Of a stretch of DNA of 10,781 nucleotides, positions 1 through 10,781 are shown in pieces. This DNA is from Armillaria gallica (taxonomy: Eukaryota > Basidiomycota > Agaricomycetes > Agaricales > Physalacriaceae), in the NCBI GenBank assembly GCA_037576215.1, contig JBANDB010000028.1:1-10781 (forward strand). The letters are read 5' to 3'. The notes below the pieces were generated by a model that saw only the letters and a program-made list of their open reading frames with translations, searched no databases and had not been told where the DNA came from. Made by a program: the position numbers and the translations under genes. Numbering within the stretch: position 1 is the first letter of the stretch; each line of letters starts with the position of its first letter.

Positions 1-192
1 TGAAACAAAGTCAAGTATAGCTTAGCCTTACGGTCACACCAACAGAACCAGATCGATAGTCGATTCTAGTACTACAAAGTATGACAGTAAAATTGGCTGC
101 CTTATGTAAGGCAGCCAGCATGTATGTAAAGTAATGATAAATAATTAATATAATTGTCTATTAATTATATAACTATAATATGATATGTTACA
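1..192 (-). repeat. 3' LTR
   Basis: In plus orientation it begins TGAAAC and ends GTTACA, so on the element strand it begins TGTAAC and ends GTTTCA, with the usual TG...CA ends. It matches 10443-10632 base for base except for two substitutions (one is CA here against CG in the other copy, in tactacAaag/tactacGaag; the other is a/t in aagtatAgct/aagtatTgct) and an extra AA after tgtatgta. It contains an 11-bp-arm hairpin at 94-117 and an AT-rich block at about 130-190. Such high identity means recent insertion, because LTRs are identical when an element integrates. It is the 3' copy because the polypurine tract abuts it. Confidence 0.96.
94..117. repeat. Hairpin in the 3' LTR (11-bp arms, 2-base loop)
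   Basis: The arms tggctgcctta (94-104) and taaggcagcca (107-117) are exact reverse complements around the loop TG. The same hairpin is unchanged in the other LTR. In the transcript it would lie about 75-100 nt into the LTR, where R-region structures involved in polyadenylation, dimerization or strand transfer could sit. That role is inference only. Confidence 0.85.
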
Positions 193-204
193 TGCCCCCT
201 TTGA
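193..204 (-). other. Polypurine tract (plus-strand primer)
   Basis: On the element strand this reads TCAAAGGGGGCA directly before the TG of the 3' LTR. A purine run adjoining the 3' LTR is the RNase H-resistant primer for plus-strand DNA synthesis in LTR retrotransposons. The run is short and ends in CA rather than being purine to the boundary, so the exact priming site may sit one or two bases inward. It is the clearest orientation marker outside the coding regions. Confidence 0.75.
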
Positions 205-422
205 GACTGGTAATCAGTCTCGATGTAAGGAGGGACAATTTGTCCATGTCAATAAGTAGTCAATGTGGAGGCACTTGGTCCTCCACGGCTCGAAAATGTC
301 CAAGTCATCTGTCAAAAAATACAACGCCGACGTTAACCGACAGTATGAATTGAAACGGAGATGAGCCGCCTACGATAATTACGCAGACGGCGGACGCGAC
401 AACTCGCGGACCGTATCGATCC
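205..422 (-). other. 3' non-coding region between second ORF and polypurine tract
   Basis: No convincing coding sequence. It holds several short inverted repeats: gagactg/cagtctc (about 203-221), ggacaa/ttgtcc just downstream, and gtggagg/cctccac (about 265-286). The part from about 330 to 422 is richer in CpG and has fewer such repeats, like the neighbouring end of the second ORF. One of the alternative frames of that ORF could run a short way into this stretch (to about 375). Confidence 0.5.
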
Positions 423-1337
423 TCATCTCATTGTCGATGTTAACCGAGGATGATGAGGCGACGGGGCCCGACGATGTTGAGGCTGTTGGAGCCTGAACTG
501 ACATGGAAGGGTGCGACGGTGAGGGGGATATGGCCCGTGTCGAGAACGGCGTTGCCATAAATCCCGACGGTTAGGGTTCATCCCCACAGGATAATACAGT
601 CCACTTTCAAGGTACTCATGACCTTGAGAGGACTCGCGGGCAAGTAGTGCGTGAAGACAAATCATGTCGTCGTCTGAGGGCAATCGCCAATCGTCCCACC
701 GGGTGATGGCTGCAGGCTCTCCATAGATGTCCAGTCGACGATGACGTTCATTGTCGACCTCGCGGAACTGGTCGATGGATGCTGTGGCCGCAAGAAACTG
801 ATTTTCGAGGTAGACCACGCCAAAGGTATAGGCATGATCTACCCACTCTACAGGTACGCGGTTGGCTATCATAGCGCGAAGCACATCAGCATCGGTGATG
901 TTGACGGCATTAGCCGCGTCGAAATATGGGGGTCGGAACTGGACGTCAGTCCAGCTCATTGGTACGAAGGGGTTGCTAGGGTTGGCGGCGTCGTAATCAG
1001 CGACCGCCTCACGATACAGTCCAGGACGCGCGATAATCAAGGCCAACAGCCTTGCAAAGCGTCCCCGTGCTCTTCCCGAGGGGGACAGTCCACGCGTCAG
1101 GGCGTGGCCCAGGAGAGTACGCCAGTGAATGCGATACGCTCGATCCACTGCAATGCCGAACACCGAATTCATCATTCCTGGTCGACAGAAGTAGAGTACA
1201 TTCTGCGCCAGTTTTTCCAGATCGAAGGTGAAACGTACACCTTCGGAATCAAACCCGGAAAGCGTAAAAAACGGTCTTCCGGCTCGGTCCTTCCATTGCA
1301 GGTACCCTTCTGGGGTCGGCATGACCGCGATGTTCAT
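423..1337 (-). pseudogene. C-terminal part of the second ORF (unknown protein), longest open stretch in the element
   Basis: Open for 304 codons from an ATG at 1337-1335 to a stop at 425-423. The same frame is open upstream of that ATG, so this is the tail of a larger gene, not a separate start. The protein looks folded: it has aromatic and charged residues in a regular mix, with segments such as GYLQWKDRAGRPFF, FTFDLEKLAQNVLYF, MSWTDVQFRPPYFDAANAV and ITRWDDWRLPSDDDM. I see no signal peptide, no convincing membrane segment, no zinc motif and no env-like feature. From about residue 250 the composition turns Arg/Pro/His-rich, and the two other frames are also open there, so a late frameshift is likely and the true C-terminus is uncertain. 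CpG is frequent and hairpins are sparse here, in contrast with gag-pol. I do not recognise the family. Confidence 0.6.
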
Positions 1338-1873
1338 GTGATGGGAGGACAGATCCAGGGGGCGAAATGTGTTCGTACTCTGGTGAACACACCAGAGTCA
1401 TTGTCCTATCCCTCACCGTAGTGTAGTAATTGATACTGATGCGCTGGAACTTGCGCAACAGATAGTAGGCTTCAGTGCGCAGTGACACTGACTTGAACTT
1501 GTTCTGCAAAAGCTCATGAGCTTTTGCAACTGCTGAGGATTCATTGGGAATCCCCTTGGCACCACCCGGTCCAGCTCCTTCGAGGTATGATAGTACCTCT
1601 CTCCTTTCTCCTCCTTGTACATCTTTGCGGCTAAGGCTTCATCGCTCACAAATACCGTATTTGTGAGCCGGGAGTAATAAAAGTGGCGGTCTAGTGCCCC
1701 GCCGTAGAACCAATTGGACCGCTCCACTGACGTCCCACTGACAAACACGCCTAGGCCATCAGGAATACGGCCTGTGGCCTGCTCCTCCCGGTCTTTATCG
1801 ACCTTTGCCTGCCGGGCGGCCTCGTGCTTCCTGGGCCTCTCTCTTGCGTTTTTTGTCTAAACGCACTCGGCGT
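1338..1873 (-). pseudogene. Middle-to-C region of the second ORF, helical, frameshifted
   Basis: Read on the minus strand in at least three frames. It begins with a lysine/arginine-rich stretch (LDKKRKREAQEA, 1860-1825) that looks like a nuclear-localization signal leading into a coiled coil. It then continues in a frame open down to 1413 with segments such as GTSVERSNWFYGG and HFYYSRLTNTVFVSDEALAA. Near 1548-1555 the frame changes by what looks like one lost base in a G/A run. The next frame carries a helical stretch (ESSAVAKAHELLQNKFKS, then LRTEAYYLLRKFQRISINYY), open to about 1365, before shifting again into the C-terminal part. The 24-bp perfect palindrome at 1505-1528 encodes AKAHELLQ within that helix. 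The function is unknown to me. Continuity with its neighbours is inferred from the shared strand and protein-like composition. Confidence 0.5.
1505..1528. repeat. 24-bp perfect palindrome inside the second ORF
   Basis: The half-site tgcaaaagctca is followed immediately by its exact reverse complement, with no spacer. It is the longest perfect palindrome I found in the window, and it lies in coding sequence of the second ORF. Confidence 0.95.
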
Positions 1874-2492
1874 TTAGCGGGGTTTCTCCTTCCGAGGGGG
1901 TCTCGTCTGATGACTCCCGTAATCACTCCCGTCGCTCGGTTCAGTCAGACCGAGCGCAGCTAACGTGAGGAGTCGCCCTTCTGCTTCGGCGTCCGTTCTC
2001 GTGTCCTTTATGGGGACCGTGGACGCATATGCCCTCAGTGGTGCCTCAAACTGCACCACTGCTCCGAACCGCATTACTATTCTGTCTGCTCCTGCGGGAC
2101 ATCTGCTCCAAACTCCACTTCCGACAGGACCACCTCATCCTGCCGCTTTGTCCCTGGCTGCTGGGAGGGCGCATGTGTTGACGAGGACAATCCTCGTAAA
2201 CTAGTGTCACCTCCACGAGCTCGTCATGTAACTCGGCCGGAGTCGGTGTGAGCTCTCCAGACTCCCGCATCCCAACCTCCGGTACTGCATCACGCGCTCT
2301 GAGGCGTTTTGCCTCAGGTTGCTCCTCCAGCGACGACGGACGCTTCTTCATAGCGTTTGTGAATGTCTTGATTGTGTTGTTGTTACGCTGCTGCAGCATA
2401 ACAATCTCATCAAGCAGCCCAGTAATCACTACCTGAGCCACCGGATCCGCCAAAAACGCAGATTCCGGTGGCACTCGCTGGCCGGCAGACAT
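1874..2492 (-). pseudogene. Central part of the second ORF: coiled coil, basic and acidic segments
   Basis: The main frame is open from an ATG at 2492 to a stop at 2048-2046, and a second frame is open from 2074 to 1874. The first carries a heptad-like segment (LLDEIVMLQQRNNN), a strongly basic segment with two clusters (KKRPSS and KRLRAR) that resembles a bipartite nuclear-localization signal, and an acidic stretch (ELHDELVEVTLVYED). After VYED the composition becomes Arg/Ser-rich, suggesting that the real frame was lost near 2180 and regained in the 2074 frame (FEAPLRAYASTVPIK). CpG is moderate, unlike gag-pol. Nuclear location and oligomerization are inferences from composition only. No known domain is recognised. 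Confidence 0.5.
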
Positions 2493-2878
2493 GAGTTGTC
2501 CACTTCCATGGGTGCTACCTGTGGCGTGCAGTTAGTGCCTGATCATCCAAAGGAGTATACTTGCACTCTGGGTCTGCGCCGTTGGAAATGGCATTGGCAT
2601 ACCCCACATCACCTGTCCTCCCATCTGCTGTCCAGGACCAGTTGGTCCTGGAAATATGGCATCTGGCATGAATTGTGGATAAAACTGTTGATGTCCAAAT
2701 TGGGCTGGAGGCTGCCCAAACTGGGACATCATTGGGTACAACGCCACACTTGGCGTTGTCATTGATGATGCTGTTGTTGTTGTTGTGGGGGGTTCCCCCC
2801 TCCTCCAGAACCCTGTGGGTTCTGAGGCTGCTGCTCAGTGGTGTACCTTGAGATGGGTACAACATTTTTTTTTGACAT
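2493..2878 (-). pseudogene. N-terminus of the second ORF, Gln/Pro/Gly-rich
   Basis: The likely start is the ATG at 2878-2876, giving MSKKN followed by a Q/P/G-rich segment (QQPQNPQGSGGGG, then QQQQQHH). A TGA at 2761-2759 ends that frame after 39 codons. The sequence continues one frame over as a Q/P/F/M/G-rich stretch (QFGQPPAQFGHQQFYPQF, GPTGPGQQMGGQ), which fits a one-base loss next to the CAT-CAA repeat. Low-complexity Q/P-rich N-termini are typical of disordered or condensate-forming regions; that is family-independent inference. I chose this start because of the leader just upstream (T10, CT-rich, CAACAACAAC, A at -3). Codons 2-5 contain a run of nine A bases. Confidence 0.5.
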
Positions 2879-2906
2879 GTTGTTGTTGGTGAGAGAAAAA
2901 AAAAAT
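2879..2906 (-). promoter_or_regulatory. T10/CT-rich leader before the second ORF
   Basis: On the element strand there is a run of ten T (2905-2896), then CTCTCACC and three CAA/AAC repeats leading directly into ATG at 2878. Pyrimidine-rich blocks followed by an A-rich stretch before ATG are common at highly expressed fungal genes. This suggests that the second ORF has its own transcript or start site, as opposed to being translated from the gag-pol message. No AG suitable for a 3' splice site lies between the T-run and the ATG, which argues against reading it as a splice acceptor. Confidence 0.4.
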
Positions 2907-3092
2907 CCTTACTCATCAGGTTACATAACCTGATCCAATCAAAAGATCTGCCTCTCATCTGATCCATACTATCTGATCAGATGGCATCATCTTATCCATC
3001 TTATCATACAGATCAAGATTGATCCTGATTGTAATCTTATCACAATCAATAAGATAATAGATTTGATTGCAATCAAATCTGGCTTACTCAGT
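2907..3092. repeat. Intergenic block of back-to-back inverted repeats
   Basis: No coding sequence recognised. Consecutive perfect inverted repeats are atcaggtta/taacctgat (2915-2934), catctgatc/gatcagatg (2956-2983), tgattgt/acaatca (3026-3048) and a 22-bp palindrome (3059-3080). The sequence is rich in GATC, ATCT and ATTG. It separates the end of pol from the second ORF, so it could hold a pol terminator or polyadenylation signal, or promoter elements for the second ORF. I cannot assign either. Confidence 0.7.
3059..3080. repeat. 22-bp perfect palindrome
   Basis: The half-site agatttgattg is followed directly by caatcaaatct, an exact reverse complement with no spacer. It lies just after the end of the pol frame at 3093, in AT-rich sequence. 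Confidence 0.95.
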
Positions 3093-3296
3093 CTAAGCAC
3101 GTGAGCGCTTAGCAAGCTGACTTGGGCATTTGATGCCTGCAGCTCTAAGTACCAATCCAAAGCTGCCAGCTTTGCACAGGTCTGATACGGCTCCCCATGT
3201 TGTATCACCAGCACTCCATTGTACCTCAAATTTGAGGTGCATTCCATCCTCCATTGATGGCCCAGGATCTCTTTGACAAACCATTCTTGTTTGTCA
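3093..3296 (-). pseudogene. pol: Chromodomain at the integrase C-terminus, split over three frames
   Basis: Three adjoining frames each hold part of a chromodomain. One reads EWFVKEILGHQWRM (about 3290-3245), typical of the N-terminal strand that begins with an aromatic and V-x-x-I-L. The next reads LKFEVQWSAGDTTW (about 3238-3194), matching the core strand with the aromatic W and the T-W signature. The third reads EPYQTCAKLAALDWYLE (about 3190-3140), the closing helix. The tail CPSQLAKRSRA ends at 3093. In chromoviruses this domain binds modified histone tails and steers integration toward heterochromatin. Each junction is a one-base shift, so the domain is recognisable but not translated intact. 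A 16-bp palindrome (3223-3238) lies inside the core strand codons. Confidence 0.75.
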
Positions 3297-3346
3297 TGGC
3301 ACCAAAGTCATAAGTCTTGGGTGTCACCTGATTAGGGAACATAGCA

Positions 3347-3802
3347 TCATTGTTTGCATTGTATTGTCTGAGTAACAATACATGGAACTTGGGTACAATG
3401 CCTAGCTAGTAGAGCTGCAGGCAGCTCTAGTACATAGTTTGATGTACTTGGTTCTGTGACCAAGATTTTGTATGGTCCAATATACTTTGGACACAACTTC
3501 CTTGCCCTCCCTTTTGGGAGGTTAAGATTCTCAGTGGACAGATATACTAACGTGCCAGGCATTAGTTCAGGCTCATCACTGCCTATCATTTGCATGTTGT
3601 GCCTGATGACAACATGTGCTGCAATGATTGCATTGTGCATGTTGGCAAGATTCTCCAATGCTTTTTGTGCAAAGTCTTTCACTCCCTTTGTGAACAACAT
3701 CATCCCCTCTGAGCTCCCATAGCATGGAGGGCATGTAGCCTCCATTGAGCTCAAATGGTGCATATTTAGTGTGTCTCTGACACACTCTTGCATTGATTGC
3801 AA
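3347..3802 (-). pseudogene. pol: Integrase C-terminal region
   Basis: Open for 151 codons. The recognisable part is from about residue 30 on: GVKDFAQKALENLA (the helix after the catalytic core), then DEPELMPGTLVYLST, GRARKLCPKYIGPYKIL and TSNYVLELPAAL. The order 'G-x-x-V-x-L ... K-L-x-P-x-x-x-G-P-Y-x-I' is the GPY/F module found at the C-terminus of Ty3/gypsy integrases, which helps bind DNA and form multimers. The first 30 residues and the last 20 are out of the original frame. The end (about 3347-3430) holds three adjacent hairpins (3360-3382, 3410-3429, 3429-3448). Confidence 0.8.
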
Positions 3803-3882
3803 ACTCAGTCAGAGGATCTTATCTACCCAGTCAGTTGCGTTGGTCTGGTTGGACCACTGTATGAGAAGATCTGGGCAATACT

Positions 3883-4188
3883 TCAATTTGCTGTCTCTGT
3901 CTGTCCATCCATCTGTGGATGGAACAATGTTGACATGAGCAGCTTAGCTCCCAGGAGCTTGTGAAGCTCCTGCCACCAGTGAGATGTGAACTTTGCATCT
4001 CTATCACTCACAATGGAACTTGGAAGGCCATGCAGCCTTACAATCTCTTCAAGTATATCCAGGATAACTCTGATGCAGTAAGTGGTTGTGTGCACCAGTA
4101 TCAGATGCACCATACTGGTCATGCAACAGATTACCACCCAAAGGTAATTGTAACCTTTGGATTTGGGGAATGGACCAACAAAGTCCAT
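3883..4188 (-). pseudogene. pol: Integrase catalytic core (D,D-35-E)
   Basis: Reads from MDFVGPFPKSKGYNYLWVV to GQTETAN. The catalytic triad is complete: D2 (MDFVGPF), D62 (SDRDAKF) and E98 (DGQTETAN), with 35 residues between D62 and E98, the standard retroviral integrase spacing. This core cuts and joins element DNA to the target in the nucleus. Residues 36-46 (TYCIRVILDIL) fit the family poorly, while the neighbouring frame reads TASELSWIYL there, the usual helix. This suggests a +1 and a -1 indel that cancel. The stop after TETAN cuts off the last helix, and the zinc domain lies in a different frame, so the enzyme is not produced intact. Confidence 0.88.
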
Positions 4189-4632
4189 TCCAATGGAGTC
4201 CCAAGGTTTTGTGGGACAGGCAGGGAATGCAACTTCCCTGCAGGTTTCTGGTTGCTTGTCTTTGACCGCTGGCAGGCCTTGCAGGTCTGACAGAACTTTG
4301 TCACTTCAGACTGCATCTGAGGCCACCAATACCACTGCCTCAGGTATTCTAGTGTCTTGTTGGTACCAAAGTGACCAATGCTCTTGTGAGCTTGAGTCAC
4401 AATCTGTGTAATGATAGTTTGGTTGCGTGGTAGGCATACCACTCTATGTCCTCAAACATTCAATATCCTGGATCAGTCTGTCCTCATCCATGCTGAATTG
4501 TGGGTGAGCTGCTGCATTTTGCTGAATCTCAGCAAAGAACAAATCCTGGTTGTATTTCCTATGTACAGCACATAGGAACTCATTGTCCTGAGGTACAGGA
4601 GAGTCAGTATACTCTCCTGCTGGCATCAACAA
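4189..4632 (-). pseudogene. pol: Integrase N-terminal region with HHCC zinc finger
   Basis: Two frames. The first (4632-4444) reads EYTDSPVPQDNEFLCAV and later FSMDEDRLIQDIECLRT, the pre-zinc region that ends in the usual 'dg-L' motif of Ty3/gypsy integrase. The second (4442-4131, open from a GTG codon) has H19-x4-H24 (AHKSIGHFGTNKTLEYL), then YWWPQM, then C54-x2-C57 (CQTCKACQRSK). Together these form the HHCC zinc finger that supports multimerization and LTR-end binding. The frame changes again just before the catalytic core, near 4205-4212, where one A seems to be missing from CAAAACC. Hairpins with 9-bp arms lie at 4556-4578 and 4596-4619. Confidence 0.85.
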
Positions 4633-5023
4633 TGCATCTGCAAGTGTAATGTCTTGGCCAGATGGTCCAAGACCACTGGCTTTGCATGTTGGACTTTGAC
4701 GTTTTTCTGTCTTCTTTGGCTGAGCCTGCTTCAGTTGCTCAGCTTTGATGTCTCAGGCTTTGTGCTGTTCCTGCAAGCGTTGACTTTGTCAAAGTTTGTT
4801 TGCTTGCATGGCACAAAGCTCCACCACATGCTCCTTTACCTCCTTGTAGCAATGATATGGTAGATCATTGCCCTGTGGATCAATGCAAATGTCTGCATTG
4901 ACATATTTGTGCATGTTGTGATGTTCACCAACTCTATTGCTCTCAAAATACCTGAGAGACAGTCAGCAACTTTATTCAATTTCCTTTGACATATGTGATG
5001 TCAAAGTTATATTGTGACATATA
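4633..5023 (-). pseudogene. pol: RNase H to integrase tether
   Basis: No frame is open throughout. Near 5000-4960 the element strand carries the conserved end of the RNase H module, FDITYVKG followed one frame over by LNKVADCLS, the family's 'Y-x-x-G-x-x-N-x-x-A-D-x-L-S-R' motif. A single base is missing from the A-run between the two parts. Beyond it one frame continues as a charged linker (YFESNRVGEHHNMHKYV, then DICIDPQGNDLPYHCYKEV) to about 4800. The stretch from about 4800 to 4650 is K/Q/E-rich and low-confidence coding. Several inverted repeats occur, such as 4984-5006 (9-bp arms). Confidence 0.6.
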
Positions 5024-5629
5024 TCAATCCACCGGCATTGCCTGGGGGGACAAGGTTGCTTGAGTCTTGAAGAACTCAAGCGCTTTATGGTTGGTTATGA
5101 TGTGGATCTTGTATCCCATCAACTTATCTTCCCACTTGAGGAGTGCCTCAAGTATTGCCAGCGTCTCCAGCTCATGGACAGCGTAGTTCTGCTGTGCCAA
5201 GGTGAATTTCCTTGACATGAAGCCAGTGGGTCTGCAATTCTGCCAGGAACTTCCCTGGCCATACATTGCACCAACTCCTGTCTTTGATGCATCACAGATG
5301 AGCCAAATTGGCTCATCATGCCTAGGATCTATGGGCCAAATCACTGGAGTCTTTGAGCAGATCCTCTTGATCATCTCAAAGCACTGCTGGTGTATGGGTC
5401 TCCATATGAATGGAGCCCTGTTCTGGGTAATGGACATTAATGGTCCAGTATACGCTGTTATATTGGGCAAGCAATTGCCAATATAGTTCACCAGTCCAAC
5501 AAACCGTTGGACATTGTTATAGGTCCATGGCACATGCCATTTGCGTATGCAGTCAATCTTGTCCTGGTCAGGGTGAATACCCTGACTGTCAATCTTGTGT
5601 CCAAGACAATCTACTGTCTTGGCATACAA
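5024..5629 (-). pseudogene. pol: RT connection and RNase H domain, catalytic Asp to Asn
   Basis: A 201-codon open frame. It starts with the RT thumb/connection (CLGHKIDSQGIHPDQDKI, then VQRFVGLVNYIGNCLPNI, the standard G-x-x-N-Y-I-x-x-F-L-P motif) and continues into RNase H. The first catalytic Asp is in CDASKTGVGAMYGQG and the Glu is in YAVHELETLAILEAL. The third acidic site is normally T-D-H-K-A-L but reads T-N-H-K-A-L; its AAC codon is at 5092-5090. RNase H removes the RNA strand after first-strand synthesis and trims the polypurine primer. Asp-to-Asn at this site should abolish or sharply reduce activity. The change fits CpG to CpA. Arg-to-Trp and Arg-to-His-type changes nearby (VPWTYNN, WHVPW) look the same. 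Confidence 0.9.
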
Positions 5630-6191
5630 CTCTCACATTTCTTCCATTTGAGGTACAGCAAGTTGGACCTCAATTGCTTCAAATATGACACAAAGATGCT
5701 CTTTGTGTTCCTCAATGGAATTGGAATATATGAATATATTGTCCAAATATATGTGGACAAATCTTCCAATCACATCTCAAAAGATAGAGGTCATCAACCT
5801 CTGAAACGTTGCAGGAGCATTGCAGTCTCCTATCTGCATGATGTTACTGATGTATGTTCCCTGTGATGGATGAGAACACTGTCTTTGGAATGTTGGACAA
5901 GCAAATTCTCACTTGTTTGTATGCATCTGTCAGGTCAATCTTTGACCTGAACTTTGCTCTTGCCATGTCTTCTCAAATCACTTCCTGATCTGGAAGTGGA
6001 GTCACATCCTTCACTGTATTGTCATTGCGTTGGCGTGCATCCAATGCAGTCCTCAAGGTACCATCCTTCTTTGGGATGCACAACAATGGTGCAGCTTGGG
6101 AGGCTGGTCTTGCCTCCCACCACTGAGCTCTCAAGTACCAATTGGTCTTGTCTTGGAGCTGCTGCTGCAGCGCCATTGGGCATTGTGGCAA
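5630..6191 (-). pseudogene. pol: Reverse transcriptase finger/palm, YLDD replaced by YLDN
   Basis: The N-terminal piece (6191-5973, 72 codons) carries RPASQAAPLLCIPKKDGTLR and ALDARQRNDNTVKDVTPLP, the fingers of Ty3/gypsy RT. Motif A follows in another frame as SKIDLTDAYKQVRI (5942-5919 region), with the first catalytic Asp present at 5936-5934. Motif B reads NAPATFQRLMTSIF and is followed by an in-frame TGA at 5779-5777 where an Arg is expected. The catalytic box reads YLDN at 5749-5738, not YLDD, with the AAT codon at 5740-5738. Loss of the second Asp of YxDD inactivates polymerase function in known RTs. A one-base frameshift lies between motifs A and B. The enzyme as encoded is dead at the sequence level, independent of the frameshifts. 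Confidence 0.88.
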
Positions 6192-6658
6192 TGATACTTA
6201 TAGACCTTATTCTCATCAATAAGGTTGATTTCATGGTTGACTTCATGCCAAGGAGGTAATTCCTCCTTGGTTCTGTTCAAGATATCCTGCAAATTCCTGC
6301 TGCCACTGCAGCCTGCAGGTTTGGAATATCCTCCTCTGTAAAACCAATGGTTTTACCTTTGCCTTTCTGGTCCACATCTCTGCATGGATGCACAGTTACC
6401 TTTGCTTGTGCCACTGGGCAAGCATACTTTTCTCTGAGGGCAGTAATCCTCAGTTCACTCTGTCTGGTGTGTAGTTGCACATGGGCACAATCTTCCTTTG
6501 CTTCTCTGTGATGTCACAGAGAGTCCATCAAAGAATACCTTGCTTGGTGGCAAGATCTTGTTGTCATTAGCTTGACAATACAATTCTTCTCTTGGCGTCC
6601 AGCATGGTCCATTCCATGCATACATTGATGCCACTAGTTCATTCCACTTGGCAGGCAT
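6192..6658 (-). pseudogene. pol: Pol connector between protease and RT
   Basis: Two overlapping frames (6658-6455 and 6480-6277) join into a continuous protein-like stretch: PAKWNELVASMYAWNG, WTPREELYCQANDNKILPPS and KVFFDGLSVTSQRSKGR, then RITALREKYACPVAQAKV and KGKGKTIGFTEEDIP. This is the usual low-conservation connector upstream of RT in this clade; no catalytic residues are expected. The remainder to 6192 carries the run-up to RT (ELPPWHEVNHEINLIDE near 6270-6210), in yet another frame. Strong hairpins are at 6248-6270, 6338-6356 and 6503-6522, all with 9-bp arms. Confidence 0.65.
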
Positions 6659-7084
6659 TTGTGGATCAAATGCCCACTCAAACGTGGGATGAGGTACAGG
6701 TTGATCCCAGATTGACCTATTTGTGCATGTGGAGGATGTCTCATCCTCCCATCCTCATTGTTTGACACAAGGTCCTCAACCTTGATTTTTGACAACGTTG
6801 GCTGGCATTCCATGCTTGACGTGTGCTGAGGCCTCTTGTCCTCAGACTTACTTGCTTTTTACACTTTTCTTGGGGCCTTCCCCCTCTTCAGAGTACGTTT
6901 GTACTCTAAAGCCTCACTTTCCAGCACCATCAGTGCTGGACTATTTGCTGGCAAGCTCACATGAGCTTGCTCCTTGTCCTCTCCATCCTCTATGGTGGGC
7001 GCTTTTCTGCCACCATCTAGTCAGTTTCTGCCTGACTAGCAGCTTCTTCTCCATGGTGCAATGTCAATGGAGTTGTCCATTGCA
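6659..7084 (-). other. Charged spacer between protease and pol connector, hairpin-rich
   Basis: No frame is open across it. On the minus strand short pieces look protein-like and charged (VLESEALEYKRTLKRGKAP near 6930-6875; STLSKIKVEDLV-type sequence near 6800-6765), so this is probably a degraded linker of the polyprotein. Its clearest feature is structural: between 6890 and 7039 five perfect inverted repeats follow each other almost without gaps (see findings). Plus-strand open frames here are shadows. Confidence 0.5.
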
Positions 7085-7510
7085 TTATCCATGGTCACTG
7101 TACTGCAGGGATGGCATTGCCATCCACCACATCTCATTCTTCTTGAAATCAAGAAGAACATTATGCTTCCTCATATAGGGTGTACCTATAATCATGTTGT
7201 AGCAATCAAAGTTTGCTACGTCCAAGTATTCCTTGGACCTTGACTTTGCACAGGCAATTGTTGCCTGTGTACCAAACTGCACTGCAGCTTGGCTGCCCAC
7301 AGTGCCCAGCTGAAGGAGTAGTGGCTCCTTCAGCTCACTCACATATATATCATGCACCTGACAGAACTGAGGTGTCACCCCAGTAGTGGTGCTTCCTGAG
7401 TCCCACAAGGTCCATGCCTTGTGGCCATTCACTTCAACATACACGATGCAAGGCACTCCTTGTCCTTGTGCTTCAGCACTGGCCTTGCCAGCTTCTCTGG
7501 AGCCTTGCAA
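7085..7510 (-). pseudogene. pol: Retropepsin-type aspartic protease
   Basis: Open for 141 codons, beginning at a TTG rather than an ATG, as expected for a piece of a polyprotein. The active site is D37-S38-G39 in WDSGSTTTG, preceded by the hydrophobic strand VPCIVYVEVNG. The second hallmark is MIIGTPYMRKHNVLLDF near residues 105-122, matching the 'I-I-G-x-x-x-L/M' flap-distal motif of Ty3/gypsy proteases, with the following D-F. It acts as a homodimer that cleaves the Gag-Pol polyprotein inside particles. Length and motif spacing are normal and the domain lies in a single frame, so this is the best-preserved pol domain. Hairpins of 9-11 bp arms at 7137-7158, 7249-7269 and 7308-7335 lie within the codons. 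Confidence 0.88.
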
Positions 7511-7922
7511 AGGTGCACCTTATACACCTTCACATTGGCTGCCCAATTGGTGGTCAAGTGCGCTGGCTGGGTAGTCTGTCAGAGCTCCCATGAACTCTGA
7601 ATCTGACTCCCTGGGCATAATAGTTGTTGTTGTTGTATACGTTGACCTCAACGTACTCATTATCTGACAACTCTTCTGGTTCAGAGGCATTCCCAGCCTC
7701 TGGTGCATTGTTGTTGAGGTTCTCCACCTCATCATCCTCAACATCAGGTTTGTTACCTGAGTCTACCCCTTCTTCATCAGGGATAGCTGTGTGTGCCATG
7801 CATACATATGCATGTGGCTTGGCCATTGGCCTTCCACCACCACCTGGGCATTTCATTTGCATAATGTCCAGGTTGTCCACACTTGAAGCAAGTGTTTGCT
7901 GCAAAGGGGCAACCTGCTTCAA
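7511..7922 (-). pseudogene. gag: Gag CCHC zinc knuckle and acidic linker to protease
   Basis: One frame reads NTCFKCGQPGHYANE at about 7896-7850, giving C-x2-C-x4-H. The final Cys of the CCHC knuckle would come from TGC at 7850-7848, but an extra A shifts the frame one codon before it, so the finger is broken. CCHC knuckles in Gag bind and package the element RNA. Downstream is an acidic, disordered linker (PDEEGVDSGNKPDVEDDEVE, then EPEELSDNEYVEVNVYNNNN), open in the 7922-7554 frame, then SDSEFMGALTDYPASALDHQ in the neighbouring frame before the protease. Acidic linkers of this kind separate Gag from protease in many basidiomycete elements. Confidence 0.8.
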
Positions 7923-8700
7923 ACTCTTGGAGGCCCATTTGACATCTTGACAATGTCAGCAGCCTGATTTTGCGACAATCACCATCTTGGTGTGGCCCTT
8001 GCTGGGGTCCTGCACCTGGTTGGTCCCTCTATCCACAGGCGGTCACTCCTGGAAGCGTTGCTCCTGGCCTGGTGCTGACCTGACCACAAACCAAGGGTTT
8101 GTATTGCCCATCATCTCCTTTTGACGGGCCCAGAAGGTGCCTACCTTCTGAGGTTCTGGTCTTTTCATTGGGCAAGTCTTTGAGCAGTGCAGCTCAAAGT
8201 GTTTTGCAATTTTGTGGGCTTGCTGTAGCGCAATGCATGCGCTACAAATCTCCTCCACTGTATTGACTTTGGGCAATAGCCCGTTGTTGCAGATGAGAGA
8301 TTCTCTCATTGCATTGGGTATCCCATGCAGGAATGTGTCTATCATTACCCAGTTGTCTGGGTAAATTGACATGTTCTGTGCGTGGTCTATCAAGGTGTCA
8401 TAGAAACCTTGAACTCCCAAGCTTCTCTGTATAGGAGGTTGCAATGAATGCCTCCCTTGCATCCTGCATTGTGGATGCACTCACAAAACAATTGTATAGT
8501 TCAAGGATCACATCCTTGAACGTCCATTGCTGTCTTGCACGATTGTAGTGCAAGACATGATGTCAAAACCAATTCTTGGCTGGTCCTTCCAAGAACTCAG
8601 GGAGAACAAATACTTGTTCTTGATCCAGACAATCACCACCATACTGGCAGCTGCCAGATGGTTGCACACATCCATTGTCCAGTTTTCCAAGTGCTGAACT
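7923..8700 (-). pseudogene. gag: Gag capsid-like domain
   Basis: At least three frames combine to give a retrotransposon-gag (capsid) domain. The pieces are MDVCNHLAAAS (about 8672-8640); then LPEFLEGPAKNWF, a stop, and HHVLHYNRARQQWTFKDVIL (about 8610-8520); then the 8480-8043 frame with GVQGFYDTLIDHAQNMSIYP, WVMIDTFLHGIPNAMRESL, VNTVEEI and ALQQAHKIAKHFELHCSK. The order 'F-L-x-G-x-A ... W ... F ... L ... P ... R' is that of Ty3/gypsy Gag. The TGA at 8565-8563 replaces an expected Arg codon. Further expected Arg positions read Cys or Trp (YNCFVS, NPWFVV), all consistent with C-to-T at CpG. Gag forms the cytoplasmic particle around the RNA. The part from 8042 to 7923 is a short basic linker toward the zinc knuckle. 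Confidence 0.8.
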
Positions 8701-9675
8701 TGGATTCACCCCTCTGATATGGGTGAATATGTTTTGATTCTGCTTTACGTGGTTTTATCCCTCTGGTAGGCGTAATGCTATGCCTACAGCATTGTCAATA
8801 ATGCTACTGAGGCGCTGGTGCATATTCTCATTATACACCTTTGTTGCCTCAGTTATCCAGGTGTTTTATTCCTGCCTTCAGCAGGAGGTACTACAGAGAA
8901 TGCTTGTACAGGTCGGTGACCTGTATAGTGTCTCCCTGCATCATTCCAGTGAGGTGGGCTCTCTGTCCACCCTAGTCCTCTGATCCCTGTCAATCAGGGA
9001 CTTGACTCGGATGGTGCAGTGGGAGGGTTACCACTCCCACTGTCTGGCTGACTGTCCGTTGGACATATTGCCTTCTCATCTTGTTGATGGGCGTTATCCC
9101 ATTGAATACAATACCCTGATCATCTATCCAGGAGTGTCCCTGGCAATTCAGGTCTTGGTTGCGCATGCGCTGATATGCTACCCTCTCAGCAAACTTATCA
9201 GCCAGTGGCACTTGATTATTCAGTGGAGGTTTCTCCACTGATTCCTTGTTTTGTGTGAGGATGCACTTCCTCCCCGTTTTGGGTAGGTTGCTATCTACCA
9301 CTGGTATGGTAGACACCGATTCAGCTGTTGACAGAGGTCTCCTTGTTGACCTCTGAATACTTTTGTCTCTGTGCTGCAGCAAACCTTGCTGCAAACTGTT
9401 CGTTAGACTCTCCTGCTTGCTGGGGAGCATATATATTGCTCATTGCCTCTCCAGGTGGGAGACAACTCTGGCTTGCCACCTGGGGTATACTTGGAATCAA
9501 GTTTGCCCCTCTGGAGTCGAGGCAGCTGATCCTCGATTTGCCTTACGGTGGTATATATGCTTGGGCTTCCAGCTCAAGAATCTGAACATACAACGTAATG
9601 TATTCAACGGTATTCAGTTGAGGGTACTTTCACCTCTAGCCTGTATCAACCGTATGTGTTTCAGTACATACAGTC
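8701..9675 (-). pseudogene. gag: Middle of gag, strongly frameshifted
   Basis: No frame is open for long. The best piece (9430-8990, from a non-ATG codon) contains PLADKFAERVAYQRMRNQDL and SWIDDQGIVFNGITPINKMR, which look like genuine protein. An adjacent frame gives APQQAGESNEQFAARFAAAQ and QRQKYSEVNKETSVNS (about 9430-9330), a charged helical segment. Upstream, EYITLYVQILELEAQAYIPP (about 9600-9545) is helical and amphipathic. From 8990 to 8701 I see no convincing protein. I interpret the whole as the region between the disordered Gag N-terminus and the capsid domain. Hairpins are dense, including acaggtc/gacctgt near 8909-8925 and gtgggag/ctcccac near 9019-9040. Confidence 0.5.
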
Positions 9676-10291
9676 CTAGTCTTGAGCTGTGCGTAGTATC
9701 CTTTGTAATGCTAGGATACCTTTTCCATAGCATAGCACACTGAACTTGAAGGTGGACTCACTCCGTCCACTCTCCTCATCATCGGAAGTTTTGTCTTCCC
9801 AATGTACTGCGGGCGTTCTTTGCTCAGGAATTGTAGTTTCCTGAGGCCCTCCAACTCCCTGCTGCTGTTGCTGTGTCAGTGGAGTGGACTCAGTTGGCAC
9901 TCTCCAACTGCCCGCCTCTGGTCTCGGCATCTTCCCCAGGAAGTACGACAAAGGTCTGCGACCTTCAGCAGGTCCCTGAGCACTACTCCTGCTCTGAGGC
10001 TGTCGCCCTGACCTCCCAGTCTGCATGGGAGATTCATGAGCCCTGCCGGATTGCTGGTCCAGGTCTTCCACAACTGCCCCTGGTCTTGCTGCACCGCTTG
10101 GCGCAGCTGTCGGCCGCACTTCACTCCATTGCGTCCCTCCTGGCATTCCCTGAGGCTGCCGGGAAGGCTCGGCCTCAGTATATTCTGACCCGGGACGACC
10201 TGGAGTCAGTCACCGCAGATTGAGGATACGCCAACGACTGGTCGATGGTCTCACCATCGCGTGTTGGTTCAGTAGATTGATTGGTCTCCAT
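9676..10291 (-). pseudogene. gag: Gag N-terminus, Gln/Ser/Pro-rich
   Basis: The first ATG after the leader is at 10291-10289 and gives METNQSTEPTRDGETIDQSL, continuing to a stop at 10177-10175 after 38 codons. An extra C at about 10190 in TCCCGGG appears to cause that stop, because the adjoining frame continues as EYTEAEPSRQPQG into an open stretch of 156 codons from the in-frame ATG at 10146. That stretch is disordered: S/G/R/P-rich (GRSGRQPQSRSSAQGPAEGR), a QQQQQ run, and an acidic EDKTSDDEESGRSES before FKFSVLCYGKG. The frame is lost again after GKG near 9715. Disordered N-termini of this kind precede the capsid domain in many fungal Gags. CpG is frequent here, unlike the rest of gag-pol. 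Confidence 0.65.
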
Positions 10292-10442
10292 CCAATCAGA
10301 TGTTGCTACGTCTCTTTTTACCCGGAAGCGTGCGTCAAGGAAGTTGATGCACTGTTCGATGCAATCACAGTCTAGGCTATCAGTCTAGACATCGTAGTCC
10401 TCGTCCGTAGTATCAGAATTGAACCCGAAAGGTTCAAAAAAG
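10292..10442 (-). other. 5' leader with hairpin; no recognisable tRNA primer site
   Basis: This is the untranslated stretch between the 5' LTR and the gag ATG. The usual primer-binding site starts TGG next to the LTR and matches a tRNA 3' end. Here the element strand reads CTTTTTTGAACC after the LTR, with no TGG. Instead a hairpin with 7-bp arms (ttgaacc/ggttcaa, 10419-10437) begins five bases from the LTR. Its 3' side reads GGGTTCAATTC on the element strand, like a tRNA T-arm. Self-priming, as in Tf1, is one possibility. No coding sequence is seen. Confidence 0.45.
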
Positions 10443-10535
10443 TGAAACAAAGTCAAGTATTGCTTAGCCTTACGGTCACACCAACAGAACCAGATCGATA
10501 GTCGATTCTAGTACTACGAAGTATGACAGTAAAAT

Positions 10536-10559
10536 TGGCTGCCTTATGTAAGGCAGCCA
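10536..10559. repeat. Hairpin in the 5' LTR (11-bp arms, 2-base loop)
   Basis: Identical to the hairpin at 94-117: arms tggctgcctta and taaggcagcca around TG. Confidence 0.85.
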
Positions 10560-10597
10560 GCATGTATGTAGTAATGATAAATAATTAATATAATTGT

Positions 10598-10613
10598 CTA
10601 TTAATTATATAAC
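10598..10613 (-). promoter_or_regulatory. Possible TATA element in the 5' LTR
   Basis: On the element strand this reads TTATATAATTAATAG, about 20-35 bases into the LTR, within an AT-rich block. Its position and sequence suit a TATA box for the element transcript, with the R region following. The surroundings are AT-rich in general, so a chance match is quite possible. Confidence 0.3.
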
Positions 10614-10632
10614 TATAATATGATATGTTACA

Positions 10633-10637
10633 CGCGT
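10633..10637. other. Candidate target-site duplication (one side only)
   Basis: The five bases CGCGT directly outside the 5' LTR are the expected 5-bp duplication for a Ty3/gypsy insertion. The partner would lie just left of base 1, outside this window. The interrupted frame is consistent: it resumes mid-codon within the Asp-Ala-Ser of RNase H. Confidence 0.35.
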
Positions 10638-10781
10638 CAAAAACTGGAGTGGGGGCCATGTATGGCCAAGGAAGTAGCTGGCAAACGTGCCGGCCTGCTG
10701 GGTTCATGTCAAAGAAATTCACTATGGCTCAGCAGAACTACGCCGTCCACAAGTTGGAAACTCTGGCTATACTAGAGGCAT
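10633..10781 (+). pseudogene. pol: Fragment of a second Ty3/gypsy element, RNase H domain, interrupted by the insertion
   Basis: From base 10634 the plus strand reads without a stop for 49 codons to the window end: ASKTGVGAMYGQGSSWQ, then CRPAGFMSKKF, then QQNYAVHKLETLAILEA. This matches the RNase H of the inner element (5306-5160 region, minus strand) at 44 of 49 residues, including the catalytic Glu. The first catalytic Asp (of DAS) would be completed on the other side of the insertion. Despite the close protein, many codons differ, and CpG is retained here (for example GCGTCA against GCATCA in the inner copy). It therefore belongs to a related but distinct family or an older split. The inner element inserted antisense to it. 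The rest of this host element lies outside the window. Confidence 0.9.

What the first reader, a model, noticed from the sequence alone, without database searches (positions are those of the whole stretch)
1240..10440. Genome-scale tiling of short perfect hairpins through a retrotransposon
Seen directly: perfect inverted repeats follow each other every few tens of bases, inside and between genes. Those with arms of at least 9 bp that I could place are: 1377-1398, 1505-1528, 1644-1668, 2036-2061, 2631-2652, 2738-2759, 2915-2934, 2956-2983, 3059-3080, 3410-3429, 3952-3972, 4556-4578, 4596-4619, 4984-5006, 6248-6270, 6338-6356, 6503-6522, 6951-6970, 7137-7158, 7249-7269, 7308-7335, 8224-8246, 8499-8521 and 8531-8557, plus the LTR hairpin. 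For random sequence with loops up to 15, arms of at least 9 should occur less than once in 10 kb (16 loop sizes times 4^-9 per position). Many more have arms of 6-8. They lie in conserved codons (for example ggaatgga/tccattcc at 4167-4191 spans the integrase GMDFVGPFP motif), so codon choice, not insertion, seems to create them. Possible meanings are a beaded, globally folded genomic RNA for packaging or RNAi avoidance, or repeated snap-back template switching during reverse transcription that perfects imperfect hairpins. I know of no such description for Ty3/gypsy elements, but I cannot search.
Basis: partly seen in the sequence, partly recalled or inferred. Interest (0 to 1): 0.88.

Follow-up and report, generated by a model that had tools for sequence, protein, structure and literature searches.

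The report
Hairpin-tiled fungal retrotransposon
A Ty3-type mobile element from what is likely a mushroom genome carries 117 short perfect self-pairing hairpins, about 15 times the number in shuffled sequence, formed largely by its choice among synonymous codons, likely because selection favoured copies that fold up on themselves.

Summary
All 24 listed hairpins are at the stated coordinates. The window has 117 perfect hairpins (arm 7 or more, loop up to 11) against 7.8 in dinucleotide shuffles, and 77 against 2.2 for arm 8 or more. In ten ORF segments, 53 face 5.3 in synonymous-codon shuffles. Arm codons match the relatives' majority residue as often as other codons do.

Eight control stretches and eight distant Ty3 loci show no clear excess. 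Sixteen nearer loci show about 2x and three relatives 7.7x (arm 8 or more). In those three, 15 hairpin pairs switch Watson-Crick type. Folding excess is 22% on both strands, close to the highest value in a published coronavirus survey of genome-scale ordered RNA structure (GORS; 23.4%).

Hairpin positions are not shared with relatives (1 of 37 in pol), and neither strand shows a G.U preference. Best reading: GORS-like selection for pervasive local pairing through synonymous sites, with almost purely Watson-Crick, strand-symmetric pairing as the new twist. Snap-back templated copying is the main rival; simple versions fit poorly in simulation but are not excluded. Function is inferred.

The parts
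1..10632 (-). LTR retrotransposon (element sense is the minus strand), tiled by short perfect hairpins
   Evidence: LTR pair; Ty3 pol domains; hairpin counts
1..192 (-). LTR (3' LTR in element sense)
   Evidence: differs from the other LTR by two substitutions and one 2-nt gap
10443..10632 (-). LTR (5' LTR in element sense)
7085..7510 (-). aspartyl protease region
   Evidence: Pfam RVP_2, E 6.9e-5
5684..6191 (-). reverse transcriptase region, frame change near 5860, two in-frame stops, YLDN in place of YLDD
   Evidence: tblastn to relatives; translations; alignment with P0001, which carries Pfam RVT_1
5027..5629 (-). RNase H region
   Evidence: Pfam RT_RNaseH and RT_RNaseH_2
3347..4442 (-). 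integrase region: H2C2 finger, core, SH3-like end, in broken frames
   Evidence: Pfam Integrase_H2C2, rve, SH3_Tf2-1
7554..9430 (-). gag region, named by position only
   Evidence: ORFs; no Pfam family for 7554-7922, 8043-8480 and 8990-9430
423..1337 (-). third ORF, 304 aa, few hairpins
   Evidence: 29 homologs, Termitomyces and Tricholoma; no Pfam family; 2 hairpins vs 0.54
94..117 (.). LTR hairpin, arm 11, loop 2
141..168 (.). LTR hairpin, arm 10, loop 8
1505..1528 (.). hairpin, arm 12, loop 0
1644..1668 (.). hairpin, arm 12, loop 1
2631..2652 (.). hairpin, arm 10, loop 2
3059..3080 (.). hairpin, arm 11, loop 0
5058..5081 (.). hairpin, arm 8, loop 8, the one pol hairpin of C28 also fully paired in relative L045
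5297..5317 (.). hairpin, arm 10, loop 1, on the conserved DEPIWLI residues of RNase H
7137..7158 (.). hairpin, arm 10, loop 2
7308..7335 (.). hairpin, arm 11, loop 6
8499..8521 (.). hairpin, arm 10, loop 3
8531..8557 (.). hairpin, arm 10, loop 7
10536..10559 (.). LTR hairpin, arm 11, loop 2
10581..10608 (.). LTR hairpin, arm 10, loop 8

Best explanation
This is a Ty3/gypsy LTR retrotransposon whose length, both LTRs included, carries 117 short perfect hairpins (arm 7 or more, loop up to 11; about 15 times the shuffled expectation), likely built by selection at synonymous sites for dense local self-pairing of the element's single-stranded copies. Shown: the excess, its dependence on codon order, the unchanged match to the protein consensus in the arms, no clear excess in control DNA and distant Ty3 loci, a moderate excess in three relatives, and paired changes in those relatives. 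Inferred: it is the retrotransposon counterpart of genome-scale ordered RNA structure (GORS) in RNA viruses, where what matters is that the genome pairs with itself and not where, so positions turn over between lineages. Inferred with less confidence: because pairing is almost purely Watson-Crick and equally strong on both strands, it would count in both complementary strands (genomic RNA and first-strand cDNA, or sense and antisense RNA); stems of at most 12 bp would keep both strands from annealing into long duplexes, and so from triggering dsRNA silencing, without being long duplexes themselves.
For: 117 vs 7.8 and 77 vs 2.2. Synonymous shuffles: 53 vs 5.3, maximum 12 of 200. Arm codons match the majority residue of relatives at 0.598 (left) and 0.548 (right) against 0.579 outside (87, 84, 648 codons), while third-position bases in arms are less like the relatives' (0.297, 0.358 vs 0.385). 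Graded excess for arm>=8: three relatives 40/5.2, 16 other near loci 23/10.7, 8 distant Ty3 loci 1/4.5, 8 control stretches 10/7.3. In the trio, changes on both sides of a pair: 15 of 401 at true partners vs 4-10 of 401 at five slid registers, 14 of the 15 Watson-Crick; 15 column pairs carry two Watson-Crick types. Folding-energy excess 22.4% sense and 22.2% antisense, controls -0.9% and -0.2%. A selection simulation on random coding sequence reached 12.3 hairpins (arm>=7) per kb with synonymous changes only.
Against: No function was tested. In the trio the higher conservation of arms (third positions 0.71-0.74 vs 0.50-0.51, and 0.88-0.935 vs 0.71) is about what neutral survival of ancestral hairpins predicts (square roots: 0.71 and 0.84), so it does not by itself show selection. 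Only 3 of the 15 covarying column pairs lie between two copies in which that hairpin is fully paired, and the pairwise comparisons share branches. C28 shares 1 of 37 pol hairpins with relatives, so structure is not conserved in place. Selection on the RNA strand alone would favour G.U in that sense (64 vs 23 in a simulation that was folded more tightly than C28); C28 has 15 vs 14, and in the trio antisense G.U is as common as sense or commoner in three of six comparisons. The third ORF has few hairpins. The smaller excess at loops of 21-30 (17 vs 6.3) is unexplained.
Confidence: 0.5

Rival explanations
1. Mutational origin: reverse transcriptase or a repair polymerase repeatedly snaps back in imperfect hairpins and copies one arm from the other (quasipalindrome-type template switching); protein selection removes harmful events and leaves perfect hairpins at tolerant sites.
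For: Strictly Watson-Crick, strand-symmetric pairing, preference for small loops, positions not shared between lineages and paired changes in the trio are all what templated copying would give.
Against: No extra amino-acid change in arms. In simulations on random coding sequence strictly synonymous copying saturated at 3.5-3.8 hairpins (arm>=8) per kb against 9.1 in C28 pol, and tolerant versions put 14-18 points more amino-acid change in arms than outside. The simulations are simple, with guessed seed and copy lengths.
Confidence: 0.28
2. Selection on the RNA strand alone: packaging signals or ordinary RNA folding of the genomic RNA.
For: Folding z about -2.4 in the sense strand; preferred centre spacing of 40-50 nt (23 vs 10.0), as repeated protein-binding units might show.
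Against: No G.U preference in the sense strand (15 vs 14) and equal folding of the antisense strand; loop base composition is close to that of unpaired surroundings, with A and T both slightly raised. Loops were not searched for a shared motif.
Confidence: 0.13
3. Sequencing or assembly artefact: the shortest contig of the assembly is a corrupted consensus.
For: C28 is the shortest of 28 contigs (10,781 bases; the next listed, C27, has 11,034), starts at the first base of an LTR, has no other match in the genome for its LTR, gag and 3' regions, and pol has several frame breaks.
Against: Both arms encode conserved residues, which errors would not preserve; four other short contigs are normal (L033-L036); three relatives on large contigs share the trait. 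Read coverage was not available.
Confidence: 0.05
4. Chance, base composition or a habit of the whole genome.
For: None found.
Against: Dinucleotide and codon shuffles and eight control stretches.
Confidence: 0.01

Closest known systems
Genome-scale ordered RNA structure (GORS) of positive-strand RNA viruses (PMC7642675; passages seen)
   Same: Pervasive stem-loops across coding sequence; folding-energy excess in the same range (C28 22.4%; coronaviruses about 15% for SARS-CoV-2 and up to 23.4%, HCV 7.5-10.7%); positions and pairings poorly conserved between relatives.
   Different: A reverse-transcribing DNA-integrated element; short, perfect, almost purely Watson-Crick stems; equal excess in the antisense strand. 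My shuffles and window steps differ from the paper's, so the percentages are comparable only roughly.
Ty3/gypsy LTR retrotransposons
   Same: PR-RT-RNase H-integrase order and LTRs.
   Different: Distant Ty3 loci of the same genome have no hairpin excess (1 vs 4.5 for arm>=8); this clade carries a third ORF after pol.
Quasipalindrome-associated template-switch mutation (PMC7202029; start of abstract seen)
   Same: Would turn imperfect inverted repeats into perfect ones.
   Different: The abstract start describes mutational hotspots in E. coli replication, not tiling of a whole element; fits C28's protein constancy poorly.
Dispersed packaging signals of RNA viruses (recalled, no call)
   Same: Many small stem-loops along a coding genome.
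   Different: No common loop motif was looked for by a dedicated search; pairing is strand-symmetric here.

Membership tests
Ty3/gypsy LTR retrotransposon | PR, RT, RNase H, integrase in that order | tested here: met
   Pfam for PR, RNase H and integrase; RT by alignment to relatives
Ty3/gypsy LTR retrotransposon | Two near-identical LTRs with TG...CA ends | tested here: met
   1-192 and 10443-10632
Ty3/gypsy LTR retrotransposon | Primer binding site matching a tRNA | not tested
   not searched
GORS | Folding-energy excess over dinucleotide shuffles along the whole genome | tested here: met
   22.4% over 29 windows of 350 nt
GORS | Pairing created through synonymous order rather than composition | tested here: met
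   synonymous shuffles; unchanged consensus match in arms
GORS | Structure belongs to the RNA strand (G.U used, sense folds better than antisense) | tested here: not met
   15 vs 14 G.U and 22.4% vs 22.2%; that this defines GORS is my reading, not taken from the paper
GORS | Genome of an RNA virus | tested here: not met
   LTR retrotransposon
Quasipalindrome template switching | Derived arm carries clustered changes, including amino-acid changes | tested here: inconclusive
   No extra amino-acid change in arms, but relatives at about 59% DNA identity are too distant to say which arm is derived

The most novel reading that the evidence does not exclude
A lineage of LTR retrotransposons has evolved strand-symmetric genome-scale self-pairing: more than a hundred almost purely Watson-Crick hairpins of 7-9 bp, often about 45 nt apart, encoded in synonymous codons so that both the RNA and its complement (cDNA or antisense RNA) fold up and cannot anneal into long duplexes, a nucleic-acid shield against silencing.
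Probability: 0.33. Interest if true: 0.88.

Novelty: new variant of a known kind. Interest (0 to 1): 0.72.

Why it matters
Genome-scale structure is described for RNA viruses. Nine library searches aimed at this listed no title that describes such tiling of an LTR retrotransposon; the library holds open-licence papers only, and I read listings and abstract starts. If selection built it, the synonymous sites of a retroelement carry a second, dense code, and the strict Watson-Crick rule suggests that pairing counts in both strands, which is testable. If it is mutational, it would be an unusually active form of templated copying in a retroelement. Either answer says something new about what shapes synonymous sites in mobile DNA.

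Tried and rejected
Chance or composition: rejected by dinucleotide and codon shuffles. Genome-wide habit of the host: rejected for eight stretches. Artefact: unlikely. Insertion of hairpins: unlikely in pol, where 171 arm codons align without gaps. Conserved positions: not found.

Codon-register test: it first looked informative (6 of 33 in the 3-3 register; 4 of 23 in pol segments), but ORF frames over 15 segments gave 20:21:20 (five of these frames have no homology support) and the selection simulation gave no depletion either (36 of 118); dropped. Arm conservation in the trio first looked like proof of selection; the survivorship argument took most of its weight. Counts of one- and two-mismatch stems did not settle whether the trio is a decayed form of a C28-like density.

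Scans of viral contigs and of prokaryote genomes found no DNA relatives; the alignment had six relatives in the wrong orientation and was redone; the ORF list of relatives used plus-strand ORFs only. A label says 15 loci, but 16 were counted; L022 and L025 were left out of the groups there (arm>=7: 5 vs 2.5 and 6 vs 3.1), as were L013, L018 and L023, which lie inside L045-L047. The output was cut in the middle and was not re-read.
Full report
WHAT IT IS. The window is the whole of contig 28 of an 86-Mb genome in 28 contigs. On the minus strand it holds an LTR retrotransposon with protease, reverse transcriptase, RNase H and integrase in Ty3/gypsy order. Its LTRs at 1-192 and 10443-10632 differ by two substitutions and one two-base gap, so the insertion looks young (inference). 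It is nevertheless a broken copy: pol has several frame changes and at least two stops. It lies against, and probably in, another related element, whose RNase H piece is at 10634-10780 on the plus strand (86% amino-acid identity). The best named protein relatives are from mushrooms: Hypsizygus marmoreus for RNase H (77%), Termitomyces (up to 75%) and Tricholoma for the third ORF. The host is likely a related agaric; this is inference. C28's LTR, gag region and 3' region have no other DNA match in the genome.

THE OBSERVATION. With arms of 7 or more and loops up to 11 there are 117 against 7.8 in shuffles; with arms of 8 or more, 77 against 2.2. The excess lies in stems of 5 to 12 bp, greatest in ratio from 7 upward, and none exceeds 12. 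It lies mainly in loops of 0-11, with a smaller unexplained excess at 21-30 (17 vs 6.3) and none at 31-80 (29 vs 29.2); mirror repeats are not in excess. Centre spacing of 40-50 nt is over-used (23 vs 10.0 expected for arm>=7; 32 vs 19.9 for arm>=6), with no long-range period seen.

CODON CHOICE. In ten ORF segments 53 hairpins are found where synonymous shuffles give 5.3 (maximum 12 of 200). In the pol alignment, arm codons agree with the relatives' majority residue as often as codons outside (0.598 left, 0.548 right, 0.579 outside; 87, 84 and 648 codons), while third-position bases in arms are less like the relatives' (0.297 and 0.358 vs 0.385). Stems such as 5297-5317 lie on residues conserved in nearly all of the 13 relatives aligned there. 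So in pol the stems were formed largely by synonymous change under protein constraint.

WHO HAS IT. For arms of 8 or more: C28 77/2.2; three relatives L045, L046 and L047 together 40/5.2; 16 other near loci 23/10.7; 8 distant Ty3 loci 1/4.5; 8 control stretches 10/7.3. The three relatives are 74-85% identical to one another in pol and 58-61% to C28. C28's hairpins are not at the same places: 1 of 37 pol hairpins is fully paired in a relative, and the paired fraction at C28's pairs is no higher in the trio (0.40-0.44) than in the other rows (0.33-0.44). Within the trio several hairpins are shared while loops differ. Fifteen column pairs carry two Watson-Crick types, 3 of them between copies in which that hairpin is fully paired. 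Changes on both sides are commoner at true partners than at slid ones (15 of 401 vs 4-10 of 401), and 14 of the 15 keep Watson-Crick pairing. These comparisons share branches and are not independent.

A CAUTION. Arms in the trio are more conserved than surroundings, at third positions too (0.71-0.74 vs 0.50-0.51; 0.88-0.935 vs 0.71), and control repeats (long-loop inverted repeats, mirror repeats) mostly are not. But a hairpin is counted only where the reference copy has not mutated. With that branch's share of divergence removed, neutral survival of ancestral hairpins predicts about 0.71 and 0.84. So the data fit hairpins that are older than the trio's split; they do not prove that selection still keeps them. 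The trio's lower density may be decay.

STRANDS. Folding excess is equal on both strands: z -2.35 and -2.43 over 54 windows; 22.4% and 22.2% over 29 windows. One-mismatch stems carry G.U in the element's sense 15 times and in the antisense 14 times. When I simulated selection for RNA folding on random coding sequence, the ratio was 64 to 23, in sequences folded more tightly than C28. Selection on the RNA strand alone is therefore a poor fit; pairing seems to be tested in, or produced by, DNA or both strands.

MECHANISM. Selection for local pairing at synonymous sites reached the observed density in simulation (12.3 per kb for arm>=7) and by design leaves the protein alone. Snap-back copying with strict synonymy stalled at 3.5-3.8 hairpins (arm>=8) per kb against 9.1 in C28 pol; looser versions raised amino-acid change in arms by 14-18 points over outside, which is not seen. 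I therefore prefer selection (0.5) to templated copying (0.28). The simulations are simple. The purpose is inference: what fits strand symmetry and short stems best is keeping both complementary strands folded, so that long duplexes, and silencing, are avoided.

KNOWN KINDS. It works like GORS of RNA viruses, where several hundred stem-loops cover the genome and are poorly conserved in place (PMC7642675, passages seen). It lacks a preference for the RNA strand and is not an RNA virus, so I call it a variant and not a member. Nine library searches aimed at it listed no title on such tiling in an LTR retrotransposon; apart from PMC7642675 I saw listings and abstract starts only. One search, a tenth search, was about Termitomyces genomes.

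Noticed in passing
423-1337 (-): A third ORF after pol, with 29 database homologs, all in Termitomyces or Tricholoma, and no Pfam family; 18 other weak matches (22-31% identity) in the same genome, several within 5 kb of related pol genes. It looks like a conserved accessory gene of this Ty3 clade and has few hairpins.
   Followed up: partly
10634-10780 (+): RNase H piece of another related element next to the LTR, 86% identical in amino acids and 80% in DNA to the window's own, suggesting a nested insertion; it has one hairpin with arm 6.
   Followed up: partly
5684-5863 (-): The RT catalytic motif reads YLDN instead of YLDD, as in the database relatives P0007 and P0012.
   Followed up: no
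window 1: The contig starts at the first base of the LTR, and the element's gag and 3' parts are single-copy in the assembly, so an unplaced or foreign contig cannot be excluded.
   Followed up: partly
L047:4755-6392: An insert of about 1.6 kb interrupts the relative L047; part of it is 87-91% identical to DNA beside L045 (8577-9490).
   Followed up: no
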